Source of the DNA: Variovorax boronicumulans
Lineage (GTDB): Bacteria; Pseudomonadota; Gammaproteobacteria; Burkholderiales; Burkholderiaceae_C
Direction of reading: 5' to 3'
Assembly (NCBI RefSeq): GCF_019352895.1
Contig: NZ_JAAAFX010000009.1
Span: 576,764-640,763 of the forward strand
Length of the DNA: 64,000 nt
Below are positions 8,318-41,661 of this stretch, one piece after another. Numbering within the stretch: the stretch's first letter is position 1; each line of letters opens with the position of its first letter. The notes beneath the pieces were generated by a model, which saw nothing but the letters and a program-made list of their open reading frames with translations, searched no databases and had not been told where the DNA came from. The position numbers were made by a program, and so were the translations under genes.

Positions 8318-8335
8318 TTCGTCGCTTCCGACGAT
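8318..8335 (+). promoter_or_regulatory. Acyl-CoA operon site 1 (repeated 18-bp dyad)
   Basis: TTCGTCGCTTCCGACGAT, with arms TCGTCG/CGACGA, is one of four near-identical copies in the window. It ends 22 bases before AACACT (8358-8363), a weak -10-like hexamer, and 63 bases before the ATG of the acyl-CoA dehydrogenase pair. Role as activator site is inferred from recurrence and constant spacing. Confidence 0.65.
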
Positions 8336-8398
8336 GGTCTGCAGGGCCGTGCCGCAGAACACTTCATCGCTTCGATCCAGTGGGAAAAGAGGCGAGCG

Positions 8399-9589
8399 AT
8401 GGCTTGGAAACTCGACGCGGCCGAGGCCGGGTTCAGGCAGGAGGTCCGGGACTTCCTGGCGGAGGCCCTGACGCCCGAACTGCGCACCGCGGGCCGGCGC
8501 TGCGCGGGCATCTTCAGCGACTACGACGACGGCATCCGCTGGCACCGCATCCTCGCGCAGCGCGGCTGGAGCGTGCCCAGCTGGCCGGTCGCGCATGGCG
8601 GCACCGGCTGGACGCCGATGCAGCACTACATCTTCGCCAGCGAACTCGCGCAGGCCGACGCGCCGCCGCTCGCGCCCAACAGCACGCGCATGGTGGCGCC
8701 AGTGATCATCGCCTTCGGCACCGAGGAGCAGAAGCAGCGCTGGCTGCCCGGCATCCGCAACGGCGACGACTACTGGGCCCAGGGCTACTCCGAACCGCAG
8801 GCGGGCTCCGACCTCGCATCGCTGCAGTGCCGCGCGGTGCGCGACGGCGAGCACTACGTGATCAACGGCACCAAGATCTGGACCACGCATGCGCACTGGT
8901 CCAACCGCATGTTCTGCCTGGTGCGCACGGCCAGCGGCGGCAAGGCGCAGCAGGGCATCAGCTTCCTGTGCTTCGACCTCGACCTGCCCGGCATCACGGT
9001 GCGCCCCATCGTCAGCATCTCGGGCGACCACGAACTCAACCAGGTGTTCTTCGACGACGTGCGCGTGCCGGTGTCCTCTTTGCTGGGCGAGGAGAACCAA
9101 GGTTGGGCCATCGCGAAATACCTGCTTGCGCACGAGCGTGGCCATGCCTGGGCGCCGCTGCTGCGCGCCCGGCTGCGGCGCCTGCGCGAGGCGGCGCGCA
9201 CCGCATGGCCGCACAGCGGGGCCGACGAAGCCCGCGACATGGTGCTGCGCCTGGCCGAGGCCGATTGCGCGATCGATGCGGTCGAGGCGCTCGAACTGCA
9301 GGCCCTGCGCGCGCAGGTGCAGGGCGAGCCGCCGGGCATCCGGCCCTCGATGGGCAAGGTGCTGGGTTCCGAGCTGCGCCAGCGGCTGACCGAGCTGGGC
9401 ATCGAGATCGCCGGCCGCTATGCCGCGGTGAACCTGCCGCTGGCCGACGGCCTGCAGGGCGCGCTGCCCGTGCCCGAGGAGGCGGTGTTCTCGATGTCGG
9501 CCTACCTCAACGACCGCGCGGCCTCGATCTACGCGGGCTCCAACGAAGTCCAGCGCAACCTCATCGCCGCGCACCTGCTGCGCGGCTGA
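8399..9589 (+). CDS. Acyl-CoA dehydrogenase, PimC-like large subunit
   Basis: A 396-residue flavoprotein that introduces the 2,3-double bond into an acyl-CoA. It has the acyl-CoA dehydrogenase N-terminal helical, middle (WAQGYSEPQAGSDLA) and C-terminal domains, ending YAGSNEVQRNLIAAHLL. The short-chain-type glutamate near the C-terminus is absent (YAGS), but a glutamate in LLAHERGHAW (E246) falls where isovaleryl- and long-chain enzymes keep theirs. With the gene 6 bases downstream it forms a large/small pair like pimeloyl-CoA dehydrogenase PimC/PimD and the heteromeric FadE pairs of steroid degraders, so an alpha2-beta2 enzyme is likely. The ATG has AGAGG just upstream, and a copy of the shared 18-bp operator precedes it. 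Confidence 0.85.
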   Translation: MAWKLDAAEAGFRQEVRDFLAEALTPELRTAGRRCAGIFSDYDDGIRWHRILAQRGWSVPSWPVAHGGTGWTPMQHYIFASELAQADAPPLAPNSTRMVAPVIIAFGTEEQKQRWLPGIRNGDDYWAQGYSEPQAGSDLASLQCRAVRDGEHYVINGTKIWTTHAHWSNRMFCLVRTASGGKAQQGISFLCFDLDLPGITVRPIVSISGDHELNQVFFDDVRVPVSSLLGEENQGWAIAKYLLAHERGHAWAPLLRARLRRLREAARTAWPHSGADEARDMVLRLAEADCAIDAVEALELQALRAQVQGEPPGIRPSMGKVLGSELRQRLTELGIEIAGRYAAVNLPLADGLQGALPVPEEAVFSMSAYLNDRAASIYAGSNEVQRNLIAAHLLRG

Positions 9590-9595
9590 ACGCCC

Positions 9596-10765
9596 ATGAC
9601 CATCGACACCCTTCAAGCCGAGCGCGAGCACACGCTCGCGATGCTGGTCGACAGCCTCTCGCGCTACCTCGGCGAACGCTTCGACCTCGACCAACGGCTG
9701 CGTTCGCTGGCCGAGGCCACCGACGCGCCGCCGGCCTTCTGGTCCGGCCTGTCGCGCGAGCTCGGCCTGCTGGGCGCGGCCCTGCCCGAGGCGCAGGGCG
9801 GCCTCGGCGGCGGCATGGCCGTGCACCTGGCCGTGATGCAGACGCTGGGTGGCGCGCTCGCGGGCGAGCCCTACCTGTCGAGCATCGTGATCGGCGCAGG
9901 CCTGCTGCAGCGCCAGCCGGGCGCGTTCAGCGACGCCTTGCTGGCCGATGCTGTCGAGGGCCGCGCGGTGCTGGCCTTCGCCCATGCCGAACCCGAGGGC
10001 CGCGACGAACGCGCCGAGGTGCGCACGCGACTGGTACGCGATGCCGAAGGCTACGAGCTCGACGGCCACAAGGCGGTGGTGCATGCGGCGCCCTGGGCTA
10101 CGCACCTGATCGTCTCGGCGCGCAGCAGCGGCCGGCCGGGCGATGCCGAGGGCCTGTCGCTGATCGTGGTCGCGCGCGATGCACCCGGCGTGCAGTTGCG
10201 CCCCTATGCGCTGCGCGACGGCACCCGCGCCGCCGAGCTGCGGCTCGAGCGTGTGCGCGTGCCGGCCGAGGCCCTGCTGGGACGCGAGGGCGAGGCGCTG
10301 CCGCAGATCGAACAGGCGCTCGACGAAGCCACGCTCGCGGTCTGCGCCGAAGCCGTGGGCGTGATGCGCCGGCTGCTGGCCGACACGCTCGACTACGTGC
10401 GCCAGCGCAAGCAGTTCGGCGTGCCCATCGCGAGCTTCCAGGTCTTGCAGCACCGGTTGGCCGACATGCACATGGCGCTGGCCCAGGCCGAAGCGCTGAC
10501 CCAGGCCGTGCTCGAGGCGATGGACGGCACCGCCGACGAACGCGCGCGGGCGGTGTCCTCGGCCAAGGTCGCGGTCGCGCGCGCCTGCAAGGCCGTGGGG
10601 CAGGGCGCGGTGCAGCTGCACGGCGGCATGGGCATGACCGAGGAGCTGGCCATCGGCCACTATTTCCGGCGCGCGACGCTGATCGAATCGCAGTTCGGCC
10701 CGGCCGCATGGCACGTGCGGCGGGTCGCGCGGCTCGAGGCGCAGCGCGATCCGACGCAGGCCTGA
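9596..10765 (+). CDS. Acyl-CoA dehydrogenase, PimD-like small subunit
   Basis: This 389-residue acyl-CoA dehydrogenase family protein is the probable second half of a heteromeric enzyme with the preceding gene. The C-terminal domain has YVRQRKQFGVPIASFQVLQHRLADM and QLHGGMGMTEELAIGHYF, typical of the PimD-like small subunit. The middle domain is reduced and carries FAHAEPEGRD where the usual flavin-binding TEP/GSD block would be. It starts 6 bases after the previous stop. Pairs of this kind act on dicarboxylyl-, cyclic or branched acyl-CoAs in known pathways; the substrate here is open. A rightward hairpin is not evident after the stop. Confidence 0.82.
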   Translation: MTIDTLQAEREHTLAMLVDSLSRYLGERFDLDQRLRSLAEATDAPPAFWSGLSRELGLLGAALPEAQGGLGGGMAVHLAVMQTLGGALAGEPYLSSIVIGAGLLQRQPGAFSDALLADAVEGRAVLAFAHAEPEGRDERAEVRTRLVRDAEGYELDGHKAVVHAAPWATHLIVSARSSGRPGDAEGLSLIVVARDAPGVQLRPYALRDGTRAAELRLERVRVPAEALLGREGEALPQIEQALDEATLAVCAEAVGVMRRLLADTLDYVRQRKQFGVPIASFQVLQHRLADMHMALAQAEALTQAVLEAMDGTADERARAVSSAKVAVARACKAVGQGAVQLHGGMGMTEELAIGHYFRRATLIESQFGPAAWHVRRVARLEAQRDPTQA

Positions 10766-10830
10766 GGCCTCGAGTCTGGCCCACCGGCCACGCCATGTTC
10801 CTGATGGACATGACGTGACTGGAAAAAGCC

Positions 10831-12937: not shown

Positions 12938-13000
12938 GGGGGTGTCTCCTCGGGGGCCTGGGTGGAGCAGGCACCTTAGGGAGGGCAGGGCGCACCGGCA

Positions 13001-13018
13001 ATCGTCCCTTTCGACGAT
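13001..13018 (+). promoter_or_regulatory. Acyl-CoA operon site 2 (repeated 18-bp dyad)
   Basis: ATCGTCCCTTTCGACGAT has perfect ATCGTC/GACGAT arms. It ends 22 bases before a good -10 box, TATGAT (13041-13046), so it would overlap the -35 position, the usual place for a class II activator. The divergent NMO gene starts 64 bases to the left, so the site could serve both directions. Confidence 0.7.
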
Positions 13019-13094
13019 GCCCCGGGCCGGTGGCGCTTCCTATGATCGATGGCAGAGACCGGCATTGGGCCCGGTCGCGCAGGAGACACGACGC

Positions 13095-14600
13095 ATGACC
13101 GCCATCGACGACCGCACCCCGATCATCGTGGGTGTGGGTGAGATCACCCACCGCAACAAGGAACCCGAGGCCGGGCTCGAGCCGATTGAGCTCATGGCGC
13201 GCGCGCTGCGCGCGGCCGAAGAGGACGCCGGTGCCGCGCTGCTGGCCGACATCGATTCGCTCGACATCGTCTGCGAATACTCCTGGCCCTACACCGACGC
13301 GACCGCGCTGCTGGGCGAACGGCTCGGCCACCTGCCGGCGCGCCGCGTCTACGGCGAGGCCGGCGGCGAGTCGCCGGTGCGCTTCATCCACGAGGCCGCG
13401 CTGCGCATCGCGCGCGGCGAGAGCCGGATCGCGGCCATCACCGGCGCCGAATCGCGCTACACCGTCGACGCCGCGGCCAAGCGCGGCATCGACCTGGGCT
13501 GGACGCCCAGGGACGACACGGTGAAGCTGGTGCGCGGCACCGACCTGTGCCACCCGGTGGCGGTGAAGCATGGCGCCGCGATGCCGATCACGATCTACCC
13601 GCTCTACGAGAACGCCGCGCTGGCGCACTGGGGCCAGACCCCGCGCGAGGCGCAGCAGGAATCGGCCGCGCTCTGGTCGCGCTATTCGGAAGTGGCCGCG
13701 GCGAATCCGCATGCCTGGCTGCGCCAGGGCTTCAGCGCCGAGGAGGTGGCGGAGCCACGCGCCGCCAACCGGCTGATCGCCTGGCCCTACACCAAGCACA
13801 TGGTGGCCAACCCGGTGGTCAACATGGGTGCGGGCGTGCTGCTGACCAGCGTGGGCCATGCGCGCGCGCTGGGCATCGCGCCCGAGAAATGGGTCTACGT
13901 GTGGGATGGTGCCGCGGCGCGCGAGCCGCGCGACTACCTGCAGCGCGACCAGTTCCACCGCTCGCATGCGCAGGACCTGGTGATGGAGACCGTGCTCGCG
14001 CAGGTGGGCGGCGATGCGTCGGCCTTCGAGATGCTCGAGCTCTACAGCTGCTTCCCCATCGTGCCCAAGATGGCGCGCCGCACGCTGGGCCTGGCGCCCG
14101 ACGCGCAGATGACCTCGACCGGCGGCCTGAGCTTCTTCGGCGCGCCGCTCAACGACTACATGACGCACGCGGCCGCGGGCCTGGTGCGCGCGCTGCGCAA
14201 CGCACCGGGCAAGACCGCGCTGCTCTACGGCCAGGGCGAGTACGTGACCAAGCACCATGCGCTGGTGCTGGGTTCGAGCCCGCCGCCGAACGGCCTGCCC
14301 CCGGCCGACTACAGCGTGCAGGCCGCGGCCGATGCGCGGCGCGGCCCGGTGCCGGCCTTCGTCGAAAGCTACAACGGCAGCGCCACGCTCGAGACCTTCA
14401 CCATCATTTACGGCCGTGACGGCCTGCCCACGCACGGCATCGTGATCGCGCGCACGCCGGCCGGCGAACGGCTGATGGCGCGCGTCGAGCCCGACGATGC
14501 AGCGGCGCTGGCGGTGCTCACCGATCTCGACCGTTCCCCGGTGGGCAGCACCGGCCACGTCACGGCAGGCACCGACAGCCTGCGCTGGAGCCTCGCATGA
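13095..14600 (+). CDS. Thiolase-superfamily protein (acetyl-CoA acetyltransferase/SCP2-thiolase-like) lacking the usual nucleophile
   Basis: This 501-residue protein has the two-half thiolase fold of the large acetyl-CoA acetyltransferase-like branch: IIVGVGEIT start, EMLELYSCFPIVPKMA near residue 320, GGLSFFGAPLNDYMTHAAAGLVRAL, and a C-terminal OB-like extension (GPVPAFVESYNGSATLETFTI). The position that holds the acyl-accepting cysteine in true thiolases reads GEAGGESPV (around residue 92) here, with no cysteine, so classical thiolysis by this protein is doubtful. Related sequences include SCP-x/Ltp2-like lipid-transfer or aldolase proteins. AGGAGAC at 13081 supports the start. Its stop overlaps the next gene by ATGA. 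Operator site 2 precedes it. Confidence 0.75.
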   Translation: MTAIDDRTPIIVGVGEITHRNKEPEAGLEPIELMARALRAAEEDAGAALLADIDSLDIVCEYSWPYTDATALLGERLGHLPARRVYGEAGGESPVRFIHEAALRIARGESRIAAITGAESRYTVDAAAKRGIDLGWTPRDDTVKLVRGTDLCHPVAVKHGAAMPITIYPLYENAALAHWGQTPREAQQESAALWSRYSEVAAANPHAWLRQGFSAEEVAEPRAANRLIAWPYTKHMVANPVVNMGAGVLLTSVGHARALGIAPEKWVYVWDGAAAREPRDYLQRDQFHRSHAQDLVMETVLAQVGGDASAFEMLELYSCFPIVPKMARRTLGLAPDAQMTSTGGLSFFGAPLNDYMTHAAAGLVRALRNAPGKTALLYGQGEYVTKHHALVLGSSPPPNGLPPADYSVQAAADARRGPVPAFVESYNGSATLETFTIIYGRDGLPTHGIVIARTPAGERLMARVEPDDAAALAVLTDLDRSPVGSTGHVTAGTDSLRWSLA

Positions 14601-15388
14601 GCACCGAACAAAAGAACGACGCGGTGCGCGTCGAGAAACTCCCGGGCCACATCGCGGTCGTCACCATCGACCGGCCCGAGGCGCGCAATGCCGTCAACGG
14701 CGCGGTCGCGGCCGGCCTCGAGGCCGCGGTCGACGCGACCGAGGCCGACGACGACATCTGGGTCGTGGTGCTGACCGGCGCGGGCCCGGACGCCTTCTGC
14801 GCGGGCGCCGACCTCAAGGAAGTGTCGGCCGGCCGCGGCAGCGCGCTGAGCACCGAGCGTGGCGGCTTCGCGGGCTTCGTCTACCGCGAGCGCAGCAAGC
14901 CCTGGATCGCGGCCGTCAACGGCAAGGCACTCGCGGGCGGCACCGAACTCACGCTGGCCTGCGACCTGGTGGTCGCGGCCGAGCATGCGGCCTTCGGCCT
15001 GCCCGAAGTGCTGCGCGGCCTGATCGCCGCGGCGGGCGGGCTGTACCGGCTGCCGCGCGCCATCCCGCCCAACATCGCGCTGGAACTGATCCTGACCGCC
15101 GGCCAGCTCGACGCGCAGCGCGCACATCAGCTGGGCTGGGTCAACCGCGTGGTGCCGGCCGCGGAGCTGCGCGACGCGGCGCTGGCGCTGGCGGCCCAGA
15201 TCACGCGCAACGCGCCCACGGCCGTGCGCGAGAGCCTGCAGGTGGCACGCATGGCCAACGAGCTCGACGAGGCCGCGCTGCGCACGCTGACCCGCGCGGC
15301 CTTCCAGCGCGTGGCGGCCAGCGAGGATTTCCGCGAAGGCCCGCGGGCCTTCATCGAGAAACGGGCGCCGCAGTGGACCGGCCGTTGA
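14597..15388 (+). CDS. Enoyl-CoA hydratase (crotonase family, both catalytic glutamates present)
   Basis: The 263-residue protein hydrates trans-2-enoyl-CoA to 3-hydroxyacyl-CoA, the second step of beta-oxidation. The oxyanion-hole segment FCAGADLKE (residues 68-75) is present. Both catalytic glutamates of active hydratases are visible, in AGGTELTL (E117) and FGLPEVLRG (E137). It overlaps the thiolase-like gene by 4 bases (ATGA) and is followed after 13 bases by a second crotonase. Of the four free-standing crotonases in this window it is the only one with the full catalytic pair, so it is the best candidate for the main hydratase of the cluster. Confidence 0.87.
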   Translation: MSTEQKNDAVRVEKLPGHIAVVTIDRPEARNAVNGAVAAGLEAAVDATEADDDIWVVVLTGAGPDAFCAGADLKEVSAGRGSALSTERGGFAGFVYRERSKPWIAAVNGKALAGGTELTLACDLVVAAEHAAFGLPEVLRGLIAAAGGLYRLPRAIPPNIALELILTAGQLDAQRAHQLGWVNRVVPAAELRDAALALAAQITRNAPTAVRESLQVARMANELDEAALRTLTRAAFQRVAASEDFREGPRAFIEKRAPQWTGR

Positions 15389-15401
15389 ACCGGGACCCGC
15401 G

Positions 15402-16226
15402 ATGAACGCCACCGACGACATCCAGCTCGACCGCAGCCACGCCGGCATCGCGGTCGTCACGCTGAACCGCCCCGAGCGCCTCAACGCGCTGAGCCAGATG
15501 ACGGTGCGCCGCCTGTGCGCATTGCTCGATGCCCTGGCGACCGACGACGCCGTGCGCGTGGTCGTGCTCACCGGCGCGGGTCGCGGCTTCTGCGCGGGCT
15601 GGGACCTGGCCAGCCCACTGACCGATGCCACCGGCGCGGAACGGGCAGGGCCACCCACGGTGGCCGACTACTGCACCGGCCAGGAACTGTTCGCGGGCAT
15701 GGTGCGCCGGCTGCGGTCGCTGGGCAAGGTGGTGATCGCGGCGGTCAACGGCGTGGCCGTGGGCGCGGGCTTCGCGCTCACGCTGGGCGCGGACATGCGC
15801 ATCGCGAGCCGCGCCGCGTCCTTCCACGTCGGCGCGGTGCGCATTGGCCTCACGGCCGGCGAATGCGGCATCAGCTACCACCTGCCGCGGCTGATCGGCG
15901 CGTCGCGCGCCTTCGAAGTCATGCTGACCGGCCGGCCGATCCCGGCCGAGGAGGCCGAGCGCATCGGGCTGGTCTCCAGGCTGGTCGACGATGCCGCCGA
16001 ACTGCTTCCTCAAGCGATGGCGCTGGCCGAACAGGTGCTGCGCAACAGCCCTTACGCCACGCGTCACACCAAGCAGATCATGTGGGCCAACCTCGATGCG
16101 GGCGGGCTCGACGCCGCGATCGAGCTCGAGAACCGTGCCCAGGTGCTGGCACTCATGACCGAGGATTTCAAGGAGGCTTCGGCGGCCTTCGTGCAGAAGC
16201 GGGCGCCGGTGTTCAGCGGGCGCTGA
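15402..16226 (+). CDS. Crotonase-family protein (enoyl-CoA hydratase/isomerase) without the catalytic glutamate pair
   Basis: A 274-residue crotonase-fold protein: FCAGWDLASPL oxyanion-hole segment, GVAVGAGFALTLGADMRIA, then FHVGAVRIGLTAGECGISYHLPRLIG. The two glutamates of active hydratases are replaced by A125 and A145; an acidic residue instead sits at E154 (TAGECG). This pattern belongs to a subgroup more likely to act as isomerase, or on unusual acyl-CoAs, than as a straight hydratase. It is last in the operon that begins at 13095. A perfect 10-bp hairpin follows the stop. Sequence features resemble the crotonase at 34.5 kb, suggesting duplicated specialised functions across the clusters. 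Confidence 0.8.
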   Translation: MNATDDIQLDRSHAGIAVVTLNRPERLNALSQMTVRRLCALLDALATDDAVRVVVLTGAGRGFCAGWDLASPLTDATGAERAGPPTVADYCTGQELFAGMVRRLRSLGKVVIAAVNGVAVGAGFALTLGADMRIASRAASFHVGAVRIGLTAGECGISYHLPRLIGASRAFEVMLTGRPIPAEEAERIGLVSRLVDDAAELLPQAMALAEQVLRNSPYATRHTKQIMWANLDAGGLDAAIELENRAQVLALMTEDFKEASAAFVQKRAPVFSGR

Positions 16227-16230
16227 AGGC

Positions 16231-16265
16231 GAGGGCGGCGGCATGCTGCGACAATCGCCGCCCTC
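16231..16265. terminator. Hairpin after acyl-CoA cluster 1
   Basis: GAGGGCGGCG (16231-16240) and CGCCGCCCTC (16256-16265) form a perfect 10-bp stem with a 15-base loop, directly after the last crotonase and before the glxA-type regulator. There is no T-tract, so termination may need Rho. Confidence 0.45.
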
Positions 16266-16283
16266 AGCCGCAACGCCCGAATC

Positions 16284-17279: not shown

Positions 17280-17380
17280 AGCCAGCCGCCACCGCGGGCT
17301 CGGCGCAGGGGGCCGGCCATAGACTTTTTCTCCTGCGGATCCATCGCAGCCCTTCAGGAGAAATCATCAACACCACGCAC

Positions 17381-20871: not shown

Positions 20872-20878
20872 GCGTCGC

Positions 20879-28913: not shown

Positions 28914-28931
28914 TTCGTCGCTTTCGACGAT
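28914..28931 (+). promoter_or_regulatory. Acyl-CoA operon site 3 (repeated 18-bp dyad)
   Basis: TTCGTCGCTTTCGACGAT ends 22 bases before CAAGAT (28954-28959), a -10-like hexamer, and 77 bases before the racemase ATG. Same orientation and spacing as the other three copies. Confidence 0.68.
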
Positions 28932-29008
28932 GCAAGCCGCGCCACCGTGGCGCCAAGATGCCTTCCATACCAACAGGCCGCCCGCGGGGGCCACAGGAGA
29001 CATCAAAC

Positions 29009-30118: not shown

Positions 30119-30130
30119 GGGCGCCTGGAC

Positions 30131-31693: not shown

Positions 31694-31732
31694 CGCACCC
31701 GTAGAAACACAACGAAAGAGGAGACAAGCGAC

Positions 31733-33292
31733 ATGATCCTGACCCAACCCCTGCACAAGGGCCGGCGCGAGAAGCCCGAAGCCATGGCCGTGGTCTTCGG
31801 CGAGCACCGGCTGAGCTTCAGCCGTTTCACCGACCGCGTGGCCCGCCTGGGCGCCGCGCTGCGCGCGCTCGACATGGGGCCGGGCGACCGCGTCGGCATG
31901 ATGAGCTTCAACTCGCATCGCTTCGTCGAGTTCTTCTTCGGCACCTGGTGGGGCGGCGGCGTGATCAACCCGGTCAACATCCGCTGGAACCCGAAGGAGG
32001 TCGCGTACTCGCTCGACGACTGCGACACCCGCATCCTGCTGGTCGACGACGCCTTCGCGCCGCTGGCGGCCGAGCTGCGCGCGCTGTCGAGCTCGCTGCG
32101 CACCGTGGTCTATTGCGGCGACGGCCCGGTGCCCGAGGGCATGCTGGGCTACGAGGCGCTGCTCGAGAAGAGCGCGCCCTGCGAGGATGCGCCGCACAGC
32201 GCCGACGAGCTGGCCGCCATCATGTACACCGGCGGCACCACCGGCCGGCCCAAGGGCGTGATGCTCACGCACGGCAACCTCTACATCGACGCGCTGGGCT
32301 CGATCGCGGCGCTGCCGCGCACCGCGCAGAAGCCCGCGATCGTGATCACCACGCCGATGTTCCACGTGGCCGGCTGCGGCCTGTCGATCCAGGCGATGCT
32401 GCGGCTCGCGCCCCAGCACGTGCTGCCGATGTTCGACGAGGTGGGCATCCTGCAGGCCATCGAATCGGCCCGCGCGACCGAAACCTTCCTGGTGCCGACC
32501 ATGATCAAGCGGCTGATCGAGCATCCGCGCTTTGCCGAGTTCGACCTCTCGAGCCTGGACCTGATGCTCTACGGCGCCGCGCCGATCGATGTGCCGCTGC
32601 TCGAGAAGGCCATGCTGGCGCTGCCGCGCGCGGGATTCTCGCAGGCCTACGGCATGACCGAGCTCTCGCCCACGGTGGCGGTGCTGCAGCCGCACTGCCA
32701 CCTGTCGGGCCCCGACCGCGAACGCCTGCTGCGCTCGACCGGCACGCCGCTGCCCATGGCCGAGATCCGCATCGTCGACGGCGAGGACAACGAGGTGCCC
32801 ACCGGCCAGATCGGCGAAATCGTGGCGCGCGGGCCGATGGTCATGCGCGGCTACTGGAACAAGCCCAGGGAAACCGAAGAGGCGCTGCGCGGCGGCTGGA
32901 TGCACACCGGCGACGGCGGCTATGTCGATGCACACGGCTTCCTGTTCGTGGTCGATCGCATCAAGGACATGATCGTGAGCGGCGGCGAGAACGTCTACTC
33001 GGCCGAGGTCGAGAACGCCATCGCGCAATTGCCCCAGGTGCTGATGTCGGCCGTGATCGGCGTGCCCGACGACAAGTGGGGCGAGCGGGTGCACGCGGTG
33101 GTGGTGCTGCGCCCGGGCGCGACGCTCGAGGCGGATGCACTGATCGCCCATTGCCGCAGCCAGATCGCGGGCTACAAGTCGCCGCGCAGCGTGGAGTTCC
33201 GCGATGCGCTGCCGCTGTCGGCCGCCGGCAAGCTGCAGAAATTCCAGTTGCGCGAGCCCTTCTGGGCCGGCCGCGAGCGCCGCGTCGCGTGA
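31733..33292 (+). CDS. Acyl-CoA synthetase (AMP-forming) B
   Basis: A second ligase of 519 residues, clearly paralogous to the preceding one: MYTGGTTGRPKGVMLTHGN, QAYGMTELSPTVA, HTGDGGYVDAHGFLFVVDRIKDMIVSGGENVYSAEVE and the catalytic lysine segment SAAGKLQKFQLREPFW. The closely similar length and layout indicate a tandem duplication with divergence. GAGGAGA lies upstream of the ATG. It precedes the acyl-CoA dehydrogenase of the same operon by 30 bases. It converts a free acid to acyl-CoA at the cost of ATP, feeding the enzymes encoded downstream. Confidence 0.88.
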   Translation: MILTQPLHKGRREKPEAMAVVFGEHRLSFSRFTDRVARLGAALRALDMGPGDRVGMMSFNSHRFVEFFFGTWWGGGVINPVNIRWNPKEVAYSLDDCDTRILLVDDAFAPLAAELRALSSSLRTVVYCGDGPVPEGMLGYEALLEKSAPCEDAPHSADELAAIMYTGGTTGRPKGVMLTHGNLYIDALGSIAALPRTAQKPAIVITTPMFHVAGCGLSIQAMLRLAPQHVLPMFDEVGILQAIESARATETFLVPTMIKRLIEHPRFAEFDLSSLDLMLYGAAPIDVPLLEKAMLALPRAGFSQAYGMTELSPTVAVLQPHCHLSGPDRERLLRSTGTPLPMAEIRIVDGEDNEVPTGQIGEIVARGPMVMRGYWNKPRETEEALRGGWMHTGDGGYVDAHGFLFVVDRIKDMIVSGGENVYSAEVENAIAQLPQVLMSAVIGVPDDKWGERVHAVVVLRPGATLEADALIAHCRSQIAGYKSPRSVEFRDALPLSAAGKLQKFQLREPFWAGRERRVA

Positions 33293-33322
33293 ACTGAACC
33301 ACTCAGAAAACAAGGAAAAGAC

Positions 33323-34471
33323 ATGCCCATCGACTTCCGCCGCTCCTGGAGCGACGAGGACCTGGAGCTCTACCGCGACAACGTGGTGCGCTTCATCGAC
33401 ACCGAGATGCTCCCGCACGACGAAGCGGCGCGCAAACGCGGCCACGTCGGCCATGAGATCTGGCACAAGGCCGGCGCGCTGGGCCTGCTGTGCGCGGACA
33501 TCCCCGAGCAATATGGCGGCGGCGGTGGCGACTTCCGCCACGAGGCGGTGTTCTACGAGGAGATGTCGCGCCGCGGCCTGACCGGCATGAGCACCTCGGT
33601 GCACGCCATCGTCGCGCACTACTTCCTCAACCACGGCACCGAGGCGCAGAAGCAGAAGTACCTGCCGCGCATGGCGCGCGGCGAGCTGGTCGGCGCCATC
33701 GCCATGACCGAGCCCGGTGCGGGCTCCGACCTGCAGGGCATCCGCACGCGCGCGCAGAAGGACGGCGAGGGCTACCTCATCAACGGCTCGAAGACCTTCA
33801 TCACCAACGGCTTCCTGGCCGGCGTGGTGCTGGTGGTGGTCAAGACCGATCCGACCCAGGGCGCCAAGGGCACCTCGATCCTGATCGTCGAAACAGAGGG
33901 CTGCAAGGGCTACCGCGTGGGCCGCGTGCTCGACAAGATCGGCATGAAGGCGCAGGACACCTCCGAACTCTTCTTCGACGACGTGCGCGTGCCGGCCGAG
34001 GCGCTGCTGGGCGGCACCGAAGGACAGGGCTTCTTCCAGCTCATGGGCGACCTGCCCTACGAGCGCACCATCATCGGCGTGACCGCGCTGGCGACGATGG
34101 AAGGCGCCTTCCAGGCCACGCTCGACTACGTGCGCGAGCGCAAGGCTTTCGGCAAGCCGATCGCCGAGTTCCAGAACACCAAGTTCAAGCTGGCCGAGAT
34201 CGCGACCCAGATCAAGGTCGGCCGGGCCTTCATCGACCGCTGCGTGGAAGACCTGGTGGCCGGAAAACTCGACACCGCCACCGCCTCGATGGCCAAGCTC
34301 TGGGGCTCGGAGACCCAGGGCCGGGTGGTCGACGAATGCCTGCAGCTGTTCGGCGGCTACGGCTTCATGAACGAGTACATGGTCGCGCGCATGTACGCCG
34401 ACGGACGCATCCAGCGCATCTACGGCGGCACCAACGAGATCATGAAAGAGGTGATCTCCCGTGCGCTTTGA
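33323..34471 (+). CDS. Acyl-CoA dehydrogenase
   Basis: A 382-residue FAD enzyme for the first oxidation of the acyl-CoA. The flavin block AMTEPGAGSDLQGIRT and C-terminal block LQLFGGYGFMNEYMVARMYADGRIQRIYGGTNEIMKE are complete. The usual catalytic glutamate of short-chain enzymes is replaced by glycine (YGGT), while E247 in LPYERTIIG occupies the alternative site used by isovaleryl- and long-chain acyl-CoA dehydrogenases. The latter accept branched or long substrates, which fits the racemase in the same operon. AAGGAAAAG precedes the start. Confidence 0.88.
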   Translation: MPIDFRRSWSDEDLELYRDNVVRFIDTEMLPHDEAARKRGHVGHEIWHKAGALGLLCADIPEQYGGGGGDFRHEAVFYEEMSRRGLTGMSTSVHAIVAHYFLNHGTEAQKQKYLPRMARGELVGAIAMTEPGAGSDLQGIRTRAQKDGEGYLINGSKTFITNGFLAGVVLVVVKTDPTQGAKGTSILIVETEGCKGYRVGRVLDKIGMKAQDTSELFFDDVRVPAEALLGGTEGQGFFQLMGDLPYERTIIGVTALATMEGAFQATLDYVRERKAFGKPIAEFQNTKFKLAEIATQIKVGRAFIDRCVEDLVAGKLDTATASMAKLWGSETQGRVVDECLQLFGGYGFMNEYMVARMYADGRIQRIYGGTNEIMKEVISRAL

Positions 34472-34495
34472 CACCGTGACGCGGGAGCTGCTGCG

Positions 34496-35287
34496 ATGAG
34501 CGTGCTCGAACTGCGCGAGGAGGGTGGCATCGCCTGGCTCACGATGAACCGGCCCGAGCGGCTCAACGCGATGAACCCGGAACTGGTGCAGGCGCTGCGC
34601 GACTACTTCGAGGGCCTGAACGCCCGCAGCAGCGCGCGCGTCGTCGTGCTGCAGGGCGCGGGCCGCGCCTTCTGCGCCGGGCTCGACCTCAAGGACCAGG
34701 TCGGCGGCCCCGAGAAGCCCTCGGTGCCCGAGGTGCTCGACCAGCAGAAGAGCATCCGCGACATCATGCTGGCGATGCGCGGCTGCCCGCAGCCCATCGT
34801 GAGCGTGGTGCAGGGCTCGGCCAGCGGCGGCGGCTTCGCGCTGGCCCTGGCATCCGACGTGCGGCTGGCCACGCCCGAGGCGCGCATGAACGCGGCCTTC
34901 ATCCGCATCGGCCTGTCGGCCTGCGACGTGGGCGTGAGCTATTTCCTGCCGCGCATGGTGGGCAGTTCGGTCGCGGCCGAGTACCTGCTCACCGGCCGCT
35001 TCATGGACGCGCAGCGCGCCTACGCGCTGGGCTTGGTGAGCCGCGTCGCGCCGCTGGCCGAACTGCAGGCCGAGGCGCAGGCGCTGGCCGAGGACATGCT
35101 GCATGCCACGCCGCTGGCGTTGCGCCTGACCAAGGACGCGCTCAACTTCGCGATCGACGCGCCCAGCATGGAGGCGGTGATCGCGATGGAAGACCGCAAC
35201 CAGGTGCTGTGCACCCAGACCGCCGATTTCCGCGAAGGCATGCAGGCCTTTCTCGAGAAACGCGCACCCAACTACGCCGGCCGTTGA
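34496..35287 (+). CDS. Crotonase-family protein lacking the catalytic glutamate pair
   Basis: The 263-residue crotonase-fold protein has the oxyanion-hole segment FCAGLDLKDQVG (residues 59-70) and SGGGFALALASDVRLAT. The two hydratase glutamates are replaced by A115 and F135 (MNAAFIRIGLSACDVGVSYFLPRMVG), with an aspartate at D144. The crotonase at 15.4 kb has the same layout, so the two belong to one subgroup, likely isomerases or hydratases for atypical acyl-CoAs. It lies 24 bases after the acyl-CoA dehydrogenase and 22 bases before the dienoyl-CoA reductase-like SDR, so an enoyl-CoA isomerase role would be logical. Confidence 0.8.
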   Translation: MSVLELREEGGIAWLTMNRPERLNAMNPELVQALRDYFEGLNARSSARVVVLQGAGRAFCAGLDLKDQVGGPEKPSVPEVLDQQKSIRDIMLAMRGCPQPIVSVVQGSASGGGFALALASDVRLATPEARMNAAFIRIGLSACDVGVSYFLPRMVGSSVAAEYLLTGRFMDAQRAYALGLVSRVAPLAELQAEAQALAEDMLHATPLALRLTKDALNFAIDAPSMEAVIAMEDRNQVLCTQTADFREGMQAFLEKRAPNYAGR

Positions 35288-35309
35288 ACGGCCCCAAGGA
35301 TTCCACGAC

Positions 35310-36206
35310 ATGACCCTCGACGACCTGATGTACAAGCCCGGCCTGCTGGCCGGCAAGCGCTACCTCGTGACCGGTGGCGGCAGCGGCCTGGGCCGCGTGA
35401 TGAGCGAGGCGCTGCTGCTGCTGGGCGCCGAGGTCTACATCTGCGGCCGGCGCGAGCCCCTGCTCGAACAGACCGCGGCCGAACTCATGGCCGCGCACGG
35501 CGGGCGCGTGATCCCCAAGGCCTGCGACATCCGCCACGAGGCGCAGATCGGCACGATGCTCGACGAGATCTGGGCCGACGGCGGCGCGCTCGACGGCCTG
35601 ATCAACAACGCGGCCGGCAACTTCGTGAGCCGCACCGAGGACCTGTCGCCGCGCGCCTTCGACGCCATCTCCAGCATCGTGTTCCGCGGCAGCTTCTGCA
35701 TGACGCTGGACTGCGGCAAGCGCTGGCTGGCGGAGGGCAAGTCGGCCTCGGTGCTGTCGATCCTCACGACCTGGGTCTGGAACGGCTCGCCCTTCACCGT
35801 GCCCTCGGCGATGTCGAAGGCCGGCCTGCATGCGATGACGCAATCGCTGGCGGTCGAATGGGCCGGCCGCGGCATCCGCTTCAACGCGATCGCGCCGGGC
35901 CTGTTCCCGACCGAGGGCATGAGCGCGCGCCTGAATCCCGGCGGCGGCGAGCACAAGGCCGACCGCAACCCCATGGACCGCAACGGCCGCATGCCCGAAC
36001 TGGCCAACCTCGCGGCCTTCCTCATGGGCCCGGGCTCCGAATACGTCAACGGCCAGACCATCGCCATCGACGGCGGCCAGTACCAGGCCACGGGCGGCAA
36101 TTTCTCGCGCATGGCCGAATGGACCGACGGCGATTGGCGGCGCGCGCGCGAGAATATCGCCGAACGTGACGCCAAGGACCGGAGACAACGCCATGCCAAC
36201 GACTGA
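35310..36206 (+). CDS. Short-chain dehydrogenase of the 2,4-dienoyl-CoA reductase (DECR) type
   Basis: This 298-residue SDR has the NADPH-binding TGGGSGLG (residues 21-28) and NNAAGNF (99-105). The usual catalytic YxxxK is replaced by SxxxK (S166, K170 in PSAMSK), followed by AGLHAMTQSLAVEWAGRGIRFNAIAPG. That substitution together with NNAAGNF is diagnostic of 2,4-dienoyl-CoA reductases of the eukaryotic/peroxisomal type, which remove double bonds at even positions during beta-oxidation. Bacteria more often use the unrelated flavoprotein FadH. Its presence indicates unsaturated acyl chains as substrates or intermediates. The end overlaps the next gene by 14 bases. Confidence 0.83.
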   Translation: MTLDDLMYKPGLLAGKRYLVTGGGSGLGRVMSEALLLLGAEVYICGRREPLLEQTAAELMAAHGGRVIPKACDIRHEAQIGTMLDEIWADGGALDGLINNAAGNFVSRTEDLSPRAFDAISSIVFRGSFCMTLDCGKRWLAEGKSASVLSILTTWVWNGSPFTVPSAMSKAGLHAMTQSLAVEWAGRGIRFNAIAPGLFPTEGMSARLNPGGGEHKADRNPMDRNGRMPELANLAAFLMGPGSEYVNGQTIAIDGGQYQATGGNFSRMAEWTDGDWRRARENIAERDAKDRRQRHAND

Positions 36207-37023
36207 GACCCAGAGATTCCACGACCGCGTGCAACTGCAGCTGGACGGCGACGGCGTCGCCCAGCTGCGGCTGTCGCGCCCCGACAAGATGAACGCCATC
36301 GACGCCGGCATGTTCGCCGGCCTGGTGGCAGCCGCCGAGCATCTGGCCGGCGTCCGCGGCCTGCGTGCGGTGGTGTTGCACGGCGAGGGCCGGGCCTTCT
36401 GCGCCGGCCTCGACATGGCGAGCTTCGACCGCATGAGCGAAGGCGGCGTGGTGGCCGACGGCCTGACCGACCTGCTGGCGCGCACCCACGGCCTGGCCAA
36501 CGCGCCGCAGCAGGTGGCCTGGGCCTGGCGCGAGCTGGCGGTGCCGGTGATCGCCGCGGTGCATGGCGTGGCCTTCGGCGGCGGCCTGCAGATCGCGCTG
36601 GGCGCCGATGTGCGCTACCTCGCGGCCGACACGCGCATGTCGGTGATGGAGATGCAGTGGGGCCTGGTGCCCGACATGGCCGGCATCCCGCTGATGCGCG
36701 AACTGCTGCGCGCCGACGTGGCACGCGAACTGGTGTTCAGCGCGCGCATCGTCGAGGCCGAGGAAGCCTGCCGCATCGGCCTGGGCACGCGCGTCTGCGC
36801 CGACCCGCTGGCCGAGGCGCTGGCCTTCGCGCGCGGCATCGCGGGCCGCAACCCCGACGCGGTGCGCGGGGCCAAGCGGCTGCTCAACCAGTCGGCCGAT
36901 GGCGATGCGGCCTCGCTTCTGATGGCCGAGTCGGTGGAGCAGGCCAAGCTCATCGGCAGCGCGAACCAGCGCGAGGCGGTCAAGGCGGCGATGGAGAAGC
37001 GGGTGCCGCGCTTCCAGGACTAG
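36193..37023 (+). CDS. Crotonase-family enoyl-CoA hydratase/isomerase
   Basis: The 276-residue crotonase has FCAGLDMASFDRM (oxyanion hole) and FGGGLQIALGADVRYLA. The first catalytic glutamate is replaced by Q133, while the second is kept as E153 in SVMEMQWGLVPD. A single retained acid fits isomerase-like chemistry better than full hydration. The start at 36193 has GGAG 8 bases upstream; an in-frame ATG at 36166 would lie deeper in the SDR gene and lacks a site. Last gene of the racemase operon. Its TAG stop and the stop of the convergent AraC gene share a single CTAG. Confidence 0.8.
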   Translation: MPTTETQRFHDRVQLQLDGDGVAQLRLSRPDKMNAIDAGMFAGLVAAAEHLAGVRGLRAVVLHGEGRAFCAGLDMASFDRMSEGGVVADGLTDLLARTHGLANAPQQVAWAWRELAVPVIAAVHGVAFGGGLQIALGADVRYLAADTRMSVMEMQWGLVPDMAGIPLMRELLRADVARELVFSARIVEAEEACRIGLGTRVCADPLAEALAFARGIAGRNPDAVRGAKRLLNQSADGDAASLLMAESVEQAKLIGSANQREAVKAAMEKRVPRFQD

Positions 37024-37787: not shown

Positions 37788-37799
37788 GGGTGGACGAGT

Positions 37800-37834
37800 T
37801 TGGCTGAACGGCGAACATTATTGGCGAATCGGCG
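37800..37834. promoter_or_regulatory. Direct-repeat operator for the AraC-type regulator
   Basis: TTGGCTGAACGGCG (37800-37813) and TTGGCGAATCGGCG (37821-37834) match at 11 of 14 positions and are exactly 21 bases apart, two helical turns. AraC proteins with two helix-turn-helix units typically bind such repeats. The pair lies 13-47 bases upstream of the araC-type start and upstream of the divergent exporter. Confidence 0.5.
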
Positions 37835-37890
37835 CAGGCGGGCCGGGCGTCGGGTCCGGACACTCGGTCTCTTTAGCGAAGAGGTTGCCC

Positions 37891-38706: not shown

Positions 38707-38713
38707 CGAAGCT

Positions 38714-41380
38714 TCAGCGGATCACGCCCAGCTTGCGCGCGATGGCCACCGCCTGCGTGCGGCTCTTGGCGTCGAGCTTCATGTTGATGTTGCGCAGGTG
38801 GGTGCGCACCGTGCTGTCGGACACGAAGAGCTTCTCGGCCATCGCGTTGTTCGAGTAGCCCTCGGCCAGCAGTTGCAGCACCCGGATCTCCTTGCGCGTG
38901 AGCGGCTCCTTGTTGCCGTCGGCGCTGGGCGCCTCGACATTCGGCGCGACCATCGGGCCCAGCACCTGCAGCAGGCGCTGCAGGTACTCGGCCAGGATCG
39001 GGTCGCTGCGCCCGTCGGCCGCGCTGCGTTCCTGCGCCGCGGTGGCGTAGCGCTGCACCAGCAGGCCCACGGCCGGACCCTCGTCGAGGATCAGGCGCAT
39101 GAAGCCTTCCTGGCTCGCGGTCTGCAGCACGGCGCCGATCTCCTCCAGGGCCGCGGCCACGTCGCCCGCGCGCTGCAGGGCCAGCGCTCGCAGCACGCGC
39201 AGCTTGAGCGCGCGGCGGCTGCGCGCGGCGGCGATGGCGGCGTGCAGTTCGGCGTCGAGCGCGGTGAGCGCGACGCGCGGGTCGCCGAAGCTGATCTCCC
39301 AGCGCGCCCGCGCCAGCGCGAGGTAGTCGAGGTCGTGCGCGGGCAGGCGCTGGCGGCGCTCGCGGTCCCACAGGGCCGGGTCGTCGGCGCGCGCCAGCTC
39401 GTCGCGCGAGGCCGGGCCGTTGCCCTGCAGCAGCAGCATGCGCGAGCGTTCGAGCTTGGCGCCCGCCACCACGCGCGGCAGCTGGCGGTGGTGGCCCAGG
39501 TACTCGAGCTCGGTCAGCGCCTGGAAGGCGGCGTCGATGTCGCCGGTGTAGAAGGCGATGCGCGAGCGCATCACATGGCTCAGGATCATGTGGTCGGGCA
39601 GGCCCACGTCGCGCGCCAGCGGCAGGTAGACGTTGAGCAGGTGGTCGGCCTGCGGCAGCTGGTTGGCCTCGTAGACCACGCCCGCGTACAGCACGCCGGC
39701 CCAGGCGTTGCCGTGGCTGTGGTTGTACGAGACCGCATGGGTGGAGTCGACCGCCATGCGGAAGCGCGCCGTGGCCTGGCGCAGCCGGCCGCCGTGCAGG
39801 TCGAGCATGCCCTCGAGCGACTCGGTGTACATGCGGTTGAAGGTGCTGTTGCCCTGGCGGCTGCGCGCCGCGTCGAGCAGGCGCTGCGACTCGTGCTGGT
39901 CGCCCACCACCGAGATGATGTTGGCCATCGCGTTGAGCAGCGCGCTGTCGGCGAAGGGCAGGCCGGTGGGCAGCCGGGCCAGGCTCTCGCGGCCGGCCTC
40001 GTAGGCCTCGTCGTAGCGGTCCTGCATGGCCAGCAGCAGCGGGGTCAGCGTGTGGGCGCTGGCGCGCACCTCGGGGATGCCACTCTCGGCGCAGCCCGAC
40101 TGCTCGAGCTTCTTCATCGCGTCCCAGGGGCCGTAGGTGAAGCAGGCGGCCCACAGCGCGATCAGCTGCAGGAAAGGGTGGGCGCGCAGCTGGTGCTCGG
40201 GGATGGCCGAGAACCAGCGCGAGAGCATGCGCATGCGGCCCTGCTCGAGGAATTCCTCGGCGTAGCTGTCGAGCAGCGTGAGCGCATGCGGATGGTCGCC
40301 GCCCTCGATCGCGTGGTCGATCGCGGGCACCGGCCGGCCCTGCGATTCGTACCAGCCCGAGGCCGCGAGGTGCAGCCGCGCGAGTTCGTCGGGCCGCTCG
40401 CGCGCCAGCTGCGCGCGCAGGAAATCGGCGAACAGGCTGTGGTAGCGCCAGGCCGGCGTGTCGCTGGCCACCGGCGTGAGGAACAGGTTGGACGCGGCCA
40501 GCTGGTCGAGGATGGCGGCGCAGTCGACGCGCGGGTTCAAGGTCTGGCAGACCGAGGCGTCGAGCTGGCGCAGGATGCTGGTGCGCAGCAGGAAGTCGCG
40601 GATCTCGCGTGGCTGGTGCGCGAGCACGTCCTCGGCCAGGTAGTCGGCCACCGCGCGGTCCGAGCCCGAGAAGCGCTCGACGAAGCCGGTCTCGAGGCCG
40701 TGCCGCTCCAGCGCCATCGAGGCCAGCCAGATGGCCGCCACCCAGCCCTCGGTCTTGCGGTGCAGCTGCGACAGCATGTCGGCCGGCAGCGCCTGGCCCG
40801 CGCGCTGGCCGAAGAAGGCGCTGGTCTCGTCGATGTTGAAGCGCAGGCGGTCGGTGTCGATCTCCATCAGCTGGCCGCGCGCGCGCAGCCGGCCCACGCC
40901 CAGGTCGGGCAGGCTGCGCGAGCCGATCACGATGCGGCCGCGGCGCGGCAGGTGGTCGATGACCTCGCGCACCAGGCCCAGCACCGCGGGCTCCTGCACC
41001 ACCTCGAAGTCGTCGAGGAACAGCGTGAAGGGCGAGTCGTGCGCGGCCAGCGCGGCCACCGCGTCGAAGGGCGCGTTGGCCGGCGGCTCGTCCACGCCCA
41101 GGCGCTGCACCGCTTCGCCCAGGCAGATCAGGAAGCGCGAGACGTCGTTGTCGGCCCGGTCGAGCGTGAGCCAGGCGGTGGCCACGCCGTCGGCCTCCAT
41201 GCGCTGGCGGCTCTGCGCCATGGCCGTGGTCTTGCCGAAGCCCGCGGGCGCGCGCACCAGGACCAGCTTCACCGCCGCCGCCGCGATCTGTTCGCTGATC
41301 GCGGTGCGCAGCACCTGCGTGACGACCACGGCCGGCGGGTTGAGCTTGGTTTCCAGGATGCGGGGCGAGGTGGGGGGCAT
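38714..41380 (-). CDS. Large ATP-dependent LuxR regulator, MalT/AlkS (LAL) type
   Basis: This regulator of 888 residues has the MalT/AlkS layout. The N-terminal STAND ATPase has Walker A APAGFGKT (residues 44-51) and Walker B LFLDD (120-124). A winged-helix and helical-repeat sensor middle (about 250-800) follows, and the C-terminal LuxR helix-turn-helix (LTRKEIRVLQLLAEGYSNNAMAEKLFVSDSTVRTHL, about 827-862). Relatives such as AlkS of alkane-degrading pseudomonads switch on hydrocarbon or fatty-acid catabolism when ligand and ATP are bound. It is divergent from the thiolase operon, with operator site 4 between, so I propose it as activator of the dispersed 18-bp-site regulon. The start at 41380 has only a weak ribosome site. 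Confidence 0.87.
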   Translation of the reverse strand: MPPTSPRILETKLNPPAVVVTQVLRTAISEQIAAAAVKLVLVRAPAGFGKTTAMAQSRQRMEADGVATAWLTLDRADNDVSRFLICLGEAVQRLGVDEPPANAPFDAVAALAAHDSPFTLFLDDFEVVQEPAVLGLVREVIDHLPRRGRIVIGSRSLPDLGVGRLRARGQLMEIDTDRLRFNIDETSAFFGQRAGQALPADMLSQLHRKTEGWVAAIWLASMALERHGLETGFVERFSGSDRAVADYLAEDVLAHQPREIRDFLLRTSILRQLDASVCQTLNPRVDCAAILDQLAASNLFLTPVASDTPAWRYHSLFADFLRAQLARERPDELARLHLAASGWYESQGRPVPAIDHAIEGGDHPHALTLLDSYAEEFLEQGRMRMLSRWFSAIPEHQLRAHPFLQLIALWAACFTYGPWDAMKKLEQSGCAESGIPEVRASAHTLTPLLLAMQDRYDEAYEAGRESLARLPTGLPFADSALLNAMANIISVVGDQHESQRLLDAARSRQGNSTFNRMYTESLEGMLDLHGGRLRQATARFRMAVDSTHAVSYNHSHGNAWAGVLYAGVVYEANQLPQADHLLNVYLPLARDVGLPDHMILSHVMRSRIAFYTGDIDAAFQALTELEYLGHHRQLPRVVAGAKLERSRMLLLQGNGPASRDELARADDPALWDRERRQRLPAHDLDYLALARARWEISFGDPRVALTALDAELHAAIAAARSRRALKLRVLRALALQRAGDVAAALEEIGAVLQTASQEGFMRLILDEGPAVGLLVQRYATAAQERSAADGRSDPILAEYLQRLLQVLGPMVAPNVEAPSADGNKEPLTRKEIRVLQLLAEGYSNNAMAEKLFVSDSTVRTHLRNINMKLDAKSRTQAVAIARKLGVIR

Positions 41381-41554
41381 TGCGGGTGGTTGGAAGAAGA
41401 AGGAAAAAGGCGGATCGGGGCCGCGCGCCAGGGCGCGGCGGGCAGGGCAGCGGTGTTGTAGCGGGCTATCGCCTCGGGTCTTGTCTCCTTGGGCGCAGCG
41501 CTTCGGGCCAGGCACCGCGAGGGACCCATTGTGGGGGTCGCCCGGGCGGGGATT

Positions 41555-41572
41555 TCCGTCGCTTCCGACGAT
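41555..41572 (+). promoter_or_regulatory. Acyl-CoA operon site 4 (repeated 18-bp dyad)
   Basis: TCCGTCGCTTCCGACGAT ends 22 bases before TAGACT (41595-41600), a -10-like hexamer, and 89 bases before the thiolase ATG. It lies in the 281-base divergent region between the LuxR-type regulator gene and the thiolase operon, so it might also serve autoregulation. Confidence 0.68.
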
Positions 41573-41661
41573 TTCGCGCTTCGATTCTGCTTTCTAGACT
41601 GGCCGCCGACCCACTGAAAAACCCTTGCAGACCGAGGCGATCCGGGCTGCAGCGCACCGAC

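What the first reader, a model, noticed from the sequence alone, without database searches (positions are those of the whole stretch)
8318..41600. A dispersed regulon: four copies of an 18-bp dyad at the acyl-CoA operons, all with identical spacing to the -10 box
Seen: TTCGTCGCTTCCGACGAT (8318-8335), ATCGTCCCTTTCGACGAT (13001-13018), TTCGTCGCTTTCGACGAT (28914-28931) and TCCGTCGCTTCCGACGAT (41555-41572). All are in the same orientation and intergenic, and each precedes an acyl-CoA catabolic gene set (PimC/PimD-like pair, thiolase-like operon, racemase operon, thiolase-FadB operon). In every case a hexamer with A at position 2 and T at position 6 (AACACT, TATGAT, CAAGAT, TAGACT) starts after exactly 22 bases. 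The dyad would abut the -35 position, the class II activator geometry. I saw no copy elsewhere in the window. Inference: one activator controls three physically separate clusters as a single pathway.
Basis: partly seen in the sequence, partly recalled or inferred. Interest (0 to 1): 0.88.

Follow-up and report, generated by a model that had tools for sequence, protein, structure and literature searches.

The report
One switch for an acyl-CoA island
In a Variovorax-like bacterium, twelve copies of one short DNA signal sit at a fixed distance before the predicted start points of fatty-acid-type breakdown and uptake genes over 145 kb, and comparison with relatives points to one MalT-like protein as the switch that reads them.

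Summary
All four dyads are where stated, each followed after 22 bases by a hexamer with A2 and T6. The genome (6.53 Mb; Variovorax by its relatives) has eight more, all in C3:585,082-730,285; all 12 are intergenic by my gene calls, 34-90 nt before a start codon. Dyad plus -10 occurs 11 times genome-wide, all in this island, against 0 for the reversed control. The adjacent MalT/LuxR-type (LAL) gene is the best regulator candidate: of 299 family genomes, 27 of 29 with it have the architecture against 15 of 270 without; the control pattern hits 13 of 299. Two amendments: spacing is 21 or 22 across relatives, and the dyad is polar (central TT on the transcribed strand). No -35 consensus is seen, as expected for class II activation. 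Target genes (alpha-methylacyl-CoA racemase, HSD10-like and LCAD-like enzymes, branched-chain-type importer) suggest catabolism of methyl-branched acids. Binding, activation, inducer and substrate are untested. A new, well-supported regulon of a known kind.

The parts
8318..8335 (+). dyad 1, TTCGTCGCTTCCGACGAT
8358..8363 (+). predicted -10 of promoter 1 (AACACT), 22 nt after the 18-mer
   Evidence: position-specific conservation in relatives
8399..10765 (+). target 1: two acyl-CoA dehydrogenase genes (8399-9589, 9596-10765), nearest NCBIfam models PimC/PimD but far below their cut-offs
13001..13018 (+). dyad 2, ATCGTCCCTTTCGACGAT
13041..13046 (+). predicted -10 of promoter 2 (TATGAT)
13095..16226 (+). 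target 2: thiolase-like protein (13095-14600) and two enoyl-CoA hydratases (14597-15388, 15402-16226)
28914..28931 (+). dyad 3, TTCGTCGCTTTCGACGAT
28954..28959 (+). predicted -10 of promoter 3 (CAAGAT)
29009..37023 (+). target 3: alpha-methylacyl-CoA racemase, two acyl-CoA ligases, acyl-CoA dehydrogenase, two enoyl-CoA hydratases, an SDR nearest to 2,4-dienoyl-CoA reductase (below that model's cut-off)
38714..41380 (-). candidate regulator: LAL/MalT-type protein (888 aa; an earlier start would give 933 aa) with Walker A APAGFGKT, MalT TPR region and C-terminal LuxR-type HTH
41555..41572 (+). dyad 4, TCCGTCGCTTCCGACGAT, in the divergent gap between the LAL gene and the thiolase operon; its TT strand points away from the LAL gene
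   Evidence: a dyad beside many LAL orthologues
41595..41600 (+). predicted -10 of promoter 4 (TAGACT)
41662..46894 (+). target 4: thiolase, FadB/FadJ-like protein (below those models' cut-offs), nitronate monooxygenase-like protein, acyl-CoA thioesterase

Best explanation
The sites are operators of one regulon read by the LAL/MalT-type protein at 38714-41380 (-). Proposed mechanism: an inducer, probably a substrate acid or its CoA ester, plus ATP turns the STAND/TPR protein into its active form; its LuxR-type HTH domains bind the TCGTC-N6-GACGA dyad, which lies at about -52 to -35, just before the place of a -35 element, and stand in for the missing -35 (class II activation). A non-symmetric centre (TT on the transcribed strand) sets the direction, so divergent gene pairs carry one dyad each. 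The targets are beta-oxidation enzymes and importers, most likely for alpha-methyl-branched or otherwise substituted carboxylic acids. Shown by sequence: sites, polarity, spacing, lack of a -35 consensus, confinement to the island, co-occurrence with and closeness to the LAL gene in other genomes. Inferred: binding, activation, inducer, substrate class.
For: Architecture 11 times genome-wide, all in the island; 0 in the reversed control. In 53 LAL-orthologue loci (1.04 Mb), 127 TCGTC-N6-GACGA dyads against at most 5 for any of the 29 other orders of the half-site letters; TT/AA-centred 94 against at most 1. A .A...T hexamer at offset 39 or 40 in 90 of 97 non-redundant TT-centred dyads; the best other adjacent pair among offsets 18-37 and 44-60 has 19 of 97; on the AA side 11 of 97. 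In 61 genomes (own included) the strict motif is in 13 of 14 with a LAL protein of 54% identity or more and in 4 of 47 others; the 5 sites in those 4 lie in long open frames and lack the -10. In 299 family genomes (own included) 27 of 29 against 15 of 270, Fisher p 2e-25 without correction for kinship; 80 of 95 architecture hits of the 27 genomes lie within 120 kb of the LAL gene. The HTH segment SDSTVRTHLR is the same in the window protein and in the 14 orthologues aligned (of 53), down to 54% identity; two paralogues with SETTVKAHLR and three with (S/A)EATVKWHLH have no TCGTC-N6-GACGA in the stretch fetched around them. Match to MalT over residues 9-404 and MalT TPR region.
Against: No binding or expression data. 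Co-occurrence is not corrected for shared ancestry, and another regulator inherited with the LAL gene is not excluded. The 54% line was drawn after seeing the results; with every genome that has any LAL match at E 1e-60 the first count is 14 of 20 against 3 of 41. Two of 29 LAL-positive family genomes (G203, G263) lack the architecture, and in G086 the only hit is far from the gene. Five of 53 orthologue loci show no centred dyad: four whole contigs of 3.8-9.2 kb and one locus of 15.7 kb. The bare dyad is not enriched genome-wide (67 against 60 in the control). In the Bradyrhizobium locus the -10 fits worse: of its 2 TT-centred dyads one fits at offset 39, the other only at 38 (read), and 2 of the 6 TT-centred dyads of that genome lie elsewhere.
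Confidence: 0.85

Rival explanations
1. Same dyad, different protein: a response regulator with a LuxR-type HTH, or a TetR-type protein encoded elsewhere, binds the sites, and the LAL gene is only linked to them.
For: LuxR-family response regulators use inverted repeats in the same place: the CrbR-dependent ACTU repeat lies at -52 to -36 (PMC5715377, passages). The island has at least one other regulator gene, AraC-type at 16284-17279, and not all of its genes were annotated.
Against: Presence and place of the sites follow the LAL gene, and dyads near LAL genes go with the HTH residues in the proteins compared. In the 17 loci the recurring neighbours that I had annotated are enzymes and transporters; some recurring neighbours were not annotated.
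Confidence: 0.1
2. The sites are operators of a repressor that an acyl-CoA releases, as for FadR-, PsrA- or LiuR-type regulators (recalled).
For: A 16-bp dyad before acyl-CoA genes is typical of such repressors (recalled).
Against: The dyad ends before the -35 position with spacing of 21 or 22 to the -10, has a polar centre, and no TTGACA-like element appears in any register tested; a repressor needs none of these.
Confidence: 0.04
3. Chance matches in a GC-rich genome.
For: Relaxed searches are noisy: 206 matches at up to 2 mismatches against 186 in the control, and 67 bare dyads against 60.
Against: At full stringency and with the -10 included the matches fall in the island only, and the control gives none; enrichment in other genomes.
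Confidence: 0.01

Closest known systems
MalT / LAL (large ATP-binding LuxR-type) activators
   Same: N-terminal part with Walker A that matches MalT (8bob chain C, residues 9-404, 4e-41), MalT TPR region, C-terminal LuxR-type HTH; lies among the catabolic genes it would control.
   Different: MalT reads short non-palindromic boxes in several copies and controls maltodextrin genes (recalled); here one 16-bp dyad per promoter at a fixed place, before acyl-CoA genes.
CrbS/CrbR regulon and its ACTU repeat (Pseudomonas fluorescens, PMC5715377)
   Same: LuxR-family regulator, imperfect inverted repeat at -52 to -36 immediately before the promoter, required for activation (passages read).
   Different: Two-component response regulator, acetate genes, a different repeat sequence (their Table 4, seen in the passages).
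TeiR of Comamonas testosteroni
   Same: LuxR-type regulator of a catabolic pathway in a related bacterium (recalled; papers seen as search listing and starts of abstracts only).
   Different: No steroid-ring genes among the targets that I annotated; sequence relation to TeiR not tested.

Membership tests
LAL / MalT-type regulators | C-terminal LuxR-type (GerE) HTH | tested here: met
   PF00196, 1e-17, above its cut-off
LAL / MalT-type regulators | N-terminal ATP-binding STAND module with Walker A | tested here: met
   APAGFGKT at residue 44; MalT 8bob match over residues 9-404; the Pfam NTPase model itself stays below its cut-off
LAL / MalT-type regulators | MalT-like TPR sensor region | tested here: met
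   PF17874, 2e-25, above its cut-off
LAL / MalT-type regulators | ATP- and inducer-dependent DNA binding and activation | not testable with these tools
   needs biochemistry
Class II activator-dependent promoter | operator at a fixed distance, abutting the -35 position | tested here: met
   hexamer at offset 39 or 40 in 90 of 97 dyads of relatives and in 12 of 12 own sites
Class II activator-dependent promoter | no good -35 hexamer | tested here: met
   mean matches to TTGACA at most 2.3 of 6 at offsets 14-23 over 97 dyads
Class II activator-dependent promoter | mapped transcription start and contact with sigma | not testable with these tools
   no expression or contact data
Alpha-methylacyl-CoA racemase (target operon 3) | match to the mycobacterial enzyme with its AGHDINYI and VGDFGGG segments (that these hold active-site His and Asp is recalled) | tested here: met
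   9e-123 to 1x74; both segments aligned with His and Asp kept
PimC/PimD pimeloyl-CoA dehydrogenase (target operon 1) | curated model cut-offs | tested here: not met
   330 against 624 bits and 297 against 653 bits

The most novel reading that the evidence does not exclude
A mobile, self-contained regulon module: one LAL activator plus a polar single-dyad promoter (21- or 22-nt phase, TT centre as direction mark) that keeps its promoters while the operons are reshuffled, present in about 20 genera of the family and carried into Bradyrhizobium, governing catabolism of methyl-branched (isoprenoid-type) acids; with a sister LAL lineage (46-47% identity) that reads the same half-sites with an AT centre.
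Probability: 0.5. Interest if true: 0.6.

Novelty: new member of a known kind. Interest (0 to 1): 0.55.

Why it matters
It gives a widespread MalT-type regulator for which I found no description a predicted binding site, promoter geometry and target list at once, so that binding, inducer and substrate can be tested directly. The paired differences in HTH residues and site centre between two LAL lineages would be a natural test of how LuxR-type HTH domains read DNA. It also ties many unassigned acyl-CoA enzymes and importers into one set.

Tried and rejected
Relaxed genome searches are mostly background and were used only for the island. The 4 genomes with the strict motif but no LAL protein of 54% identity or more (G003, G013, G024, G059; 5 sites) were checked: each site lies in open frames of more than 150 codons and lacks the -10, so I take them as chance; G024 has a more distant LAL protein (33%). 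Literature: nine searches, seen as listings and starts of abstracts, several of them capped (15 of 673, 15 of 26, 15 of 16, 10 of 143, 10 of 11, 8 of 13); none of the titles listed names this protein or dyad. One paper, PMC5715377, was read in passages. Pfam, NCBIfam and PDB comparison did not fix the substrate. Steroid-ring catabolism was considered; the annotated targets do not show it, but not every gene of the island was annotated. My gene caller worked poorly on the Bradyrhizobium locus L137 (it missed the LAL gene), so I used the plain ORF list there. Gene starts in the island are from my own caller, not from a curated annotation.

Rows dropped or moved: of the 55 loci, L148 (40% identity) was put with the paralogues and L151 (32% over 88 residues) left out, giving 53; AT-centred dyads and dyads more than 85% identical over 126 nt to one already kept were removed (172 to 97); of 53 orthologues only 14, and of 15 paralogues only 8, were put in the HTH alignment; two nested duplicate hits (G086, G282) were counted once, and second LAL copies (e.g. 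G255 C15) were not used for distances. Searches scored only 3 candidates per genome, so LAL copies may be missed.

Full report
The observation. With up to 3 mismatches the window holds one more match, with 3, and 0 of 100 shuffles give as many as 5. Each is followed after 22 bases by a .A...T hexamer. By my own gene calls all four are intergenic, 64-90 nt before a start codon.

The whole genome. The window is C3:576764-640763 of a 6.53-Mb genome in 15 contigs. The named loci with the closest relatives of the adjacent LAL gene are Variovorax, and another genome of the same genus has the protein at 100% identity. The strict pattern NTCGTCNCTTNCGACGAN has 5 matches, all in C3:585-730 kb; allowing C at the first T gives 6, all in the same stretch. 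Reading C3:540-780 kb gave 12 sites: 585082+, 589765+, 605678+, 618319+, 675189-, 675220+, 677859+, 682979-, 692747+, 707164-, 707227+, 730270+. All 12 are intergenic, 34-90 nt before a start codon. Ten have the hexamer 22 nt after the 18-mer, two (675189, 692747) have 21. The bare dyad TCGTC-N6-GACGA is not enriched genome-wide (67 against 60 in the control), so half-sites alone mean little; but dyad with WT centre plus -10 occurs 11 times, all in the island, and 0 times in the reversed control. The twelfth site (618319, window site 4) begins with CCGTC and so falls outside that pattern.

Polarity. The central dinucleotide is TT on the transcribed strand in 11 of 12 sites and AT in one, 675220. 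Two divergent gene pairs (675189-/675220+ and 707164-/707227+) have one dyad for each direction. In LAL loci of relatives, orienting dyads by TT puts a .A...T hexamer at offset 39 or 40 in 90 of 97 non-redundant dyads from 44 loci, and in 11 of 97 on the AA side. Information per position is low outside the dyad (with an A/T-rich stretch before it and TGC after it) and the -10. No register at offsets 14-23 resembles TTGACA (mean at most 2.3 of 6). This is how a class II activator-dependent promoter should look.

Who reads it. The protein divergent from site 4 has a Walker A motif, a MalT TPR region and a LuxR-type HTH, and matches MalT over residues 9-404. Four tests tie it to the sites. (1) In 61 genomes (own included) a LAL protein of 54% identity or more is in 14; the strict motif is in 13 of these and in 4 of the other 47 (Fisher p 5e-9). 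I drew the 54% line after seeing the result; with all 20 genomes that have any match at E 1e-60 the count is 14 of 20 against 3 of 41. The 5 sites in the 4 exceptions are inside long open frames and lack the -10; the one LAL-bearing genome without a strict hit (G028) has CCGTCGCTTCCGACGA beside the gene (L186). (2) In 299 genomes of the family (own included) the gene at E 1e-150 is in 29 and the full architecture in 42, with 27 shared; 15 of the 270 others have it, and the reversed control pattern is in 13 of 299 by my count of the table. Of 95 hits in the 27 genomes, 80 lie within 120 kb of the gene on its contig, 10 of these in the window's own genome; in G086 the only hit does not, and in G184 the gene lies on another contig than its four hits. 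(3) In 53 orthologue loci the half-site gives 127 dyads; the best of 29 other letter orders gives 5. In the 17 loci compared gene by gene the operon order differs strongly, and in many of them a dyad stands directly before a block of the same target genes; there are exceptions, e.g. no dyad in L126 and none beside the LAL gene in L118, L132 and L134. In the genome with the Bradyrhizobium oropedii locus (protein 54%), 6 TT-centred dyads occur in 9 Mb (control 1), 4 of them in one 21-kb stretch that contains the LAL gene; in that locus the -10 fits worse. (4) The HTH segment SDSTVRTHLR is the same in the window protein and the 14 orthologues aligned. Of 15 paralogue loci (at most 47% identity) 13 have no TCGTC-N6-GACGA; the two of 46-47% (segment AETTVRTHLR) have two AT-centred TCGTCGCATCCGACGA copies each (8 of the 15 paralogues were aligned, and one of the 13 loci is only 3.9 kb). 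None of these tests corrects for shared ancestry.

What it controls. Genes after the dyads: acyl-CoA dehydrogenase pair (site 1); thiolase-like protein and two hydratases (2); alpha-methylacyl-CoA racemase, two ligases, dehydrogenase, two hydratases and an SDR (3); thiolase and FadB/FadJ-like protein (4); an acyl-CoA ligase (673610); TctC-type binding protein, thiolase-like protein and OB-fold protein (675298-677848); FadB and an HSD10-like SDR (677947-680930); ABC-type binding protein (681705); thiolase and branched-chain-amino-acid-type ABC transporter (692825 on); ligase (705520); TctC and two CoA-ligase-type proteins (707319-710459); two ABC-type binding proteins and a ligase (730363-734508). 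Several recur beside LAL orthologues elsewhere: HSD10-like SDR, thiolase, FadB, racemase, LCAD-like dehydrogenase, importer. The racemase matches mycobacterial alpha-methylacyl-CoA racemase at 9e-123, the SDR type II 3-hydroxyacyl-CoA dehydrogenases, the dehydrogenase mitochondrial LCAD. That set suggests alpha-methyl-branched or isoprenoid-type acids; this is inference. The pair at 8399-10765 is not PimC/PimD by the curated cut-offs.

Mechanism and rivals. I hold LAL-dependent class II activation at 0.85. The main rival is another protein that uses the same dyad; the CrbR-dependent ACTU repeat at -52 to -36 (PMC5715377, passages) shows that the geometry is not peculiar to LAL proteins. A repressor does not explain spacing, polarity and the lack of a -35. 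The TT strand of site 4 points away from the LAL gene, so self-activation through this site is not predicted. In orthologue loci with a dyad directly upstream of the gene it lies from 14 to about 195 nt before the first aligned residue, so negative autoregulation is possible but untested.

Novelty. Nine literature searches of the held library (listings, several capped) showed no title on this protein or its site; papers outside the library were not seen. The kind of system, a LAL activator with its own operator among catabolic genes, is known; the member, its polar single dyad and its reach are new as far as I could see.

Noticed in passing
L173 (4377, 8825) and L174 (6652, 9477): Two copies of TCGTCGCATCCGACGA lie near each of two LAL paralogues of 46-47% identity: same half-sites, AT centre, HTH segment AETTVRTHLR. 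A sister regulon with a different centre is possible.
   Followed up: partly
G000:C3:565906-568623 (L179), just upstream of the window: A second LAL protein (31% identity, HTH segment AEATVKWHLH) lies near the island; no TCGTC-N6-GACGA dyad in the 20 kb fetched around it.
   Followed up: partly
G086:C1:5399859, G298:C4:133059, G195:C1:2815304, G245:C17:42871, G198:C108:3297: A look-alike, TCGTCC(C/T)TTT(G)GACGA followed by a recurring stretch (e.g. GGGGTAAACC in G245), appears in several family genomes, three of them without the LAL gene and two away from it; it may belong to another regulator.
   Followed up: no
L137 (Bradyrhizobium oropedii contig): LAL gene at 54% identity in a stretch of 56-59% G+C, with stretches of 64-67% in the same locus, as after transfer between classes; contamination of the assembly was not excluded.
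   Followed up: partly
window 16284-17279 +: AraC-type regulator with a DJ-1/PfpI domain directly after the target-2 genes; a possible second layer of control.
   Followed up: no
window 50963-56338 +: Very long open frame (1791 aa) with strong coding bias, not annotated here.
   Followed up: no
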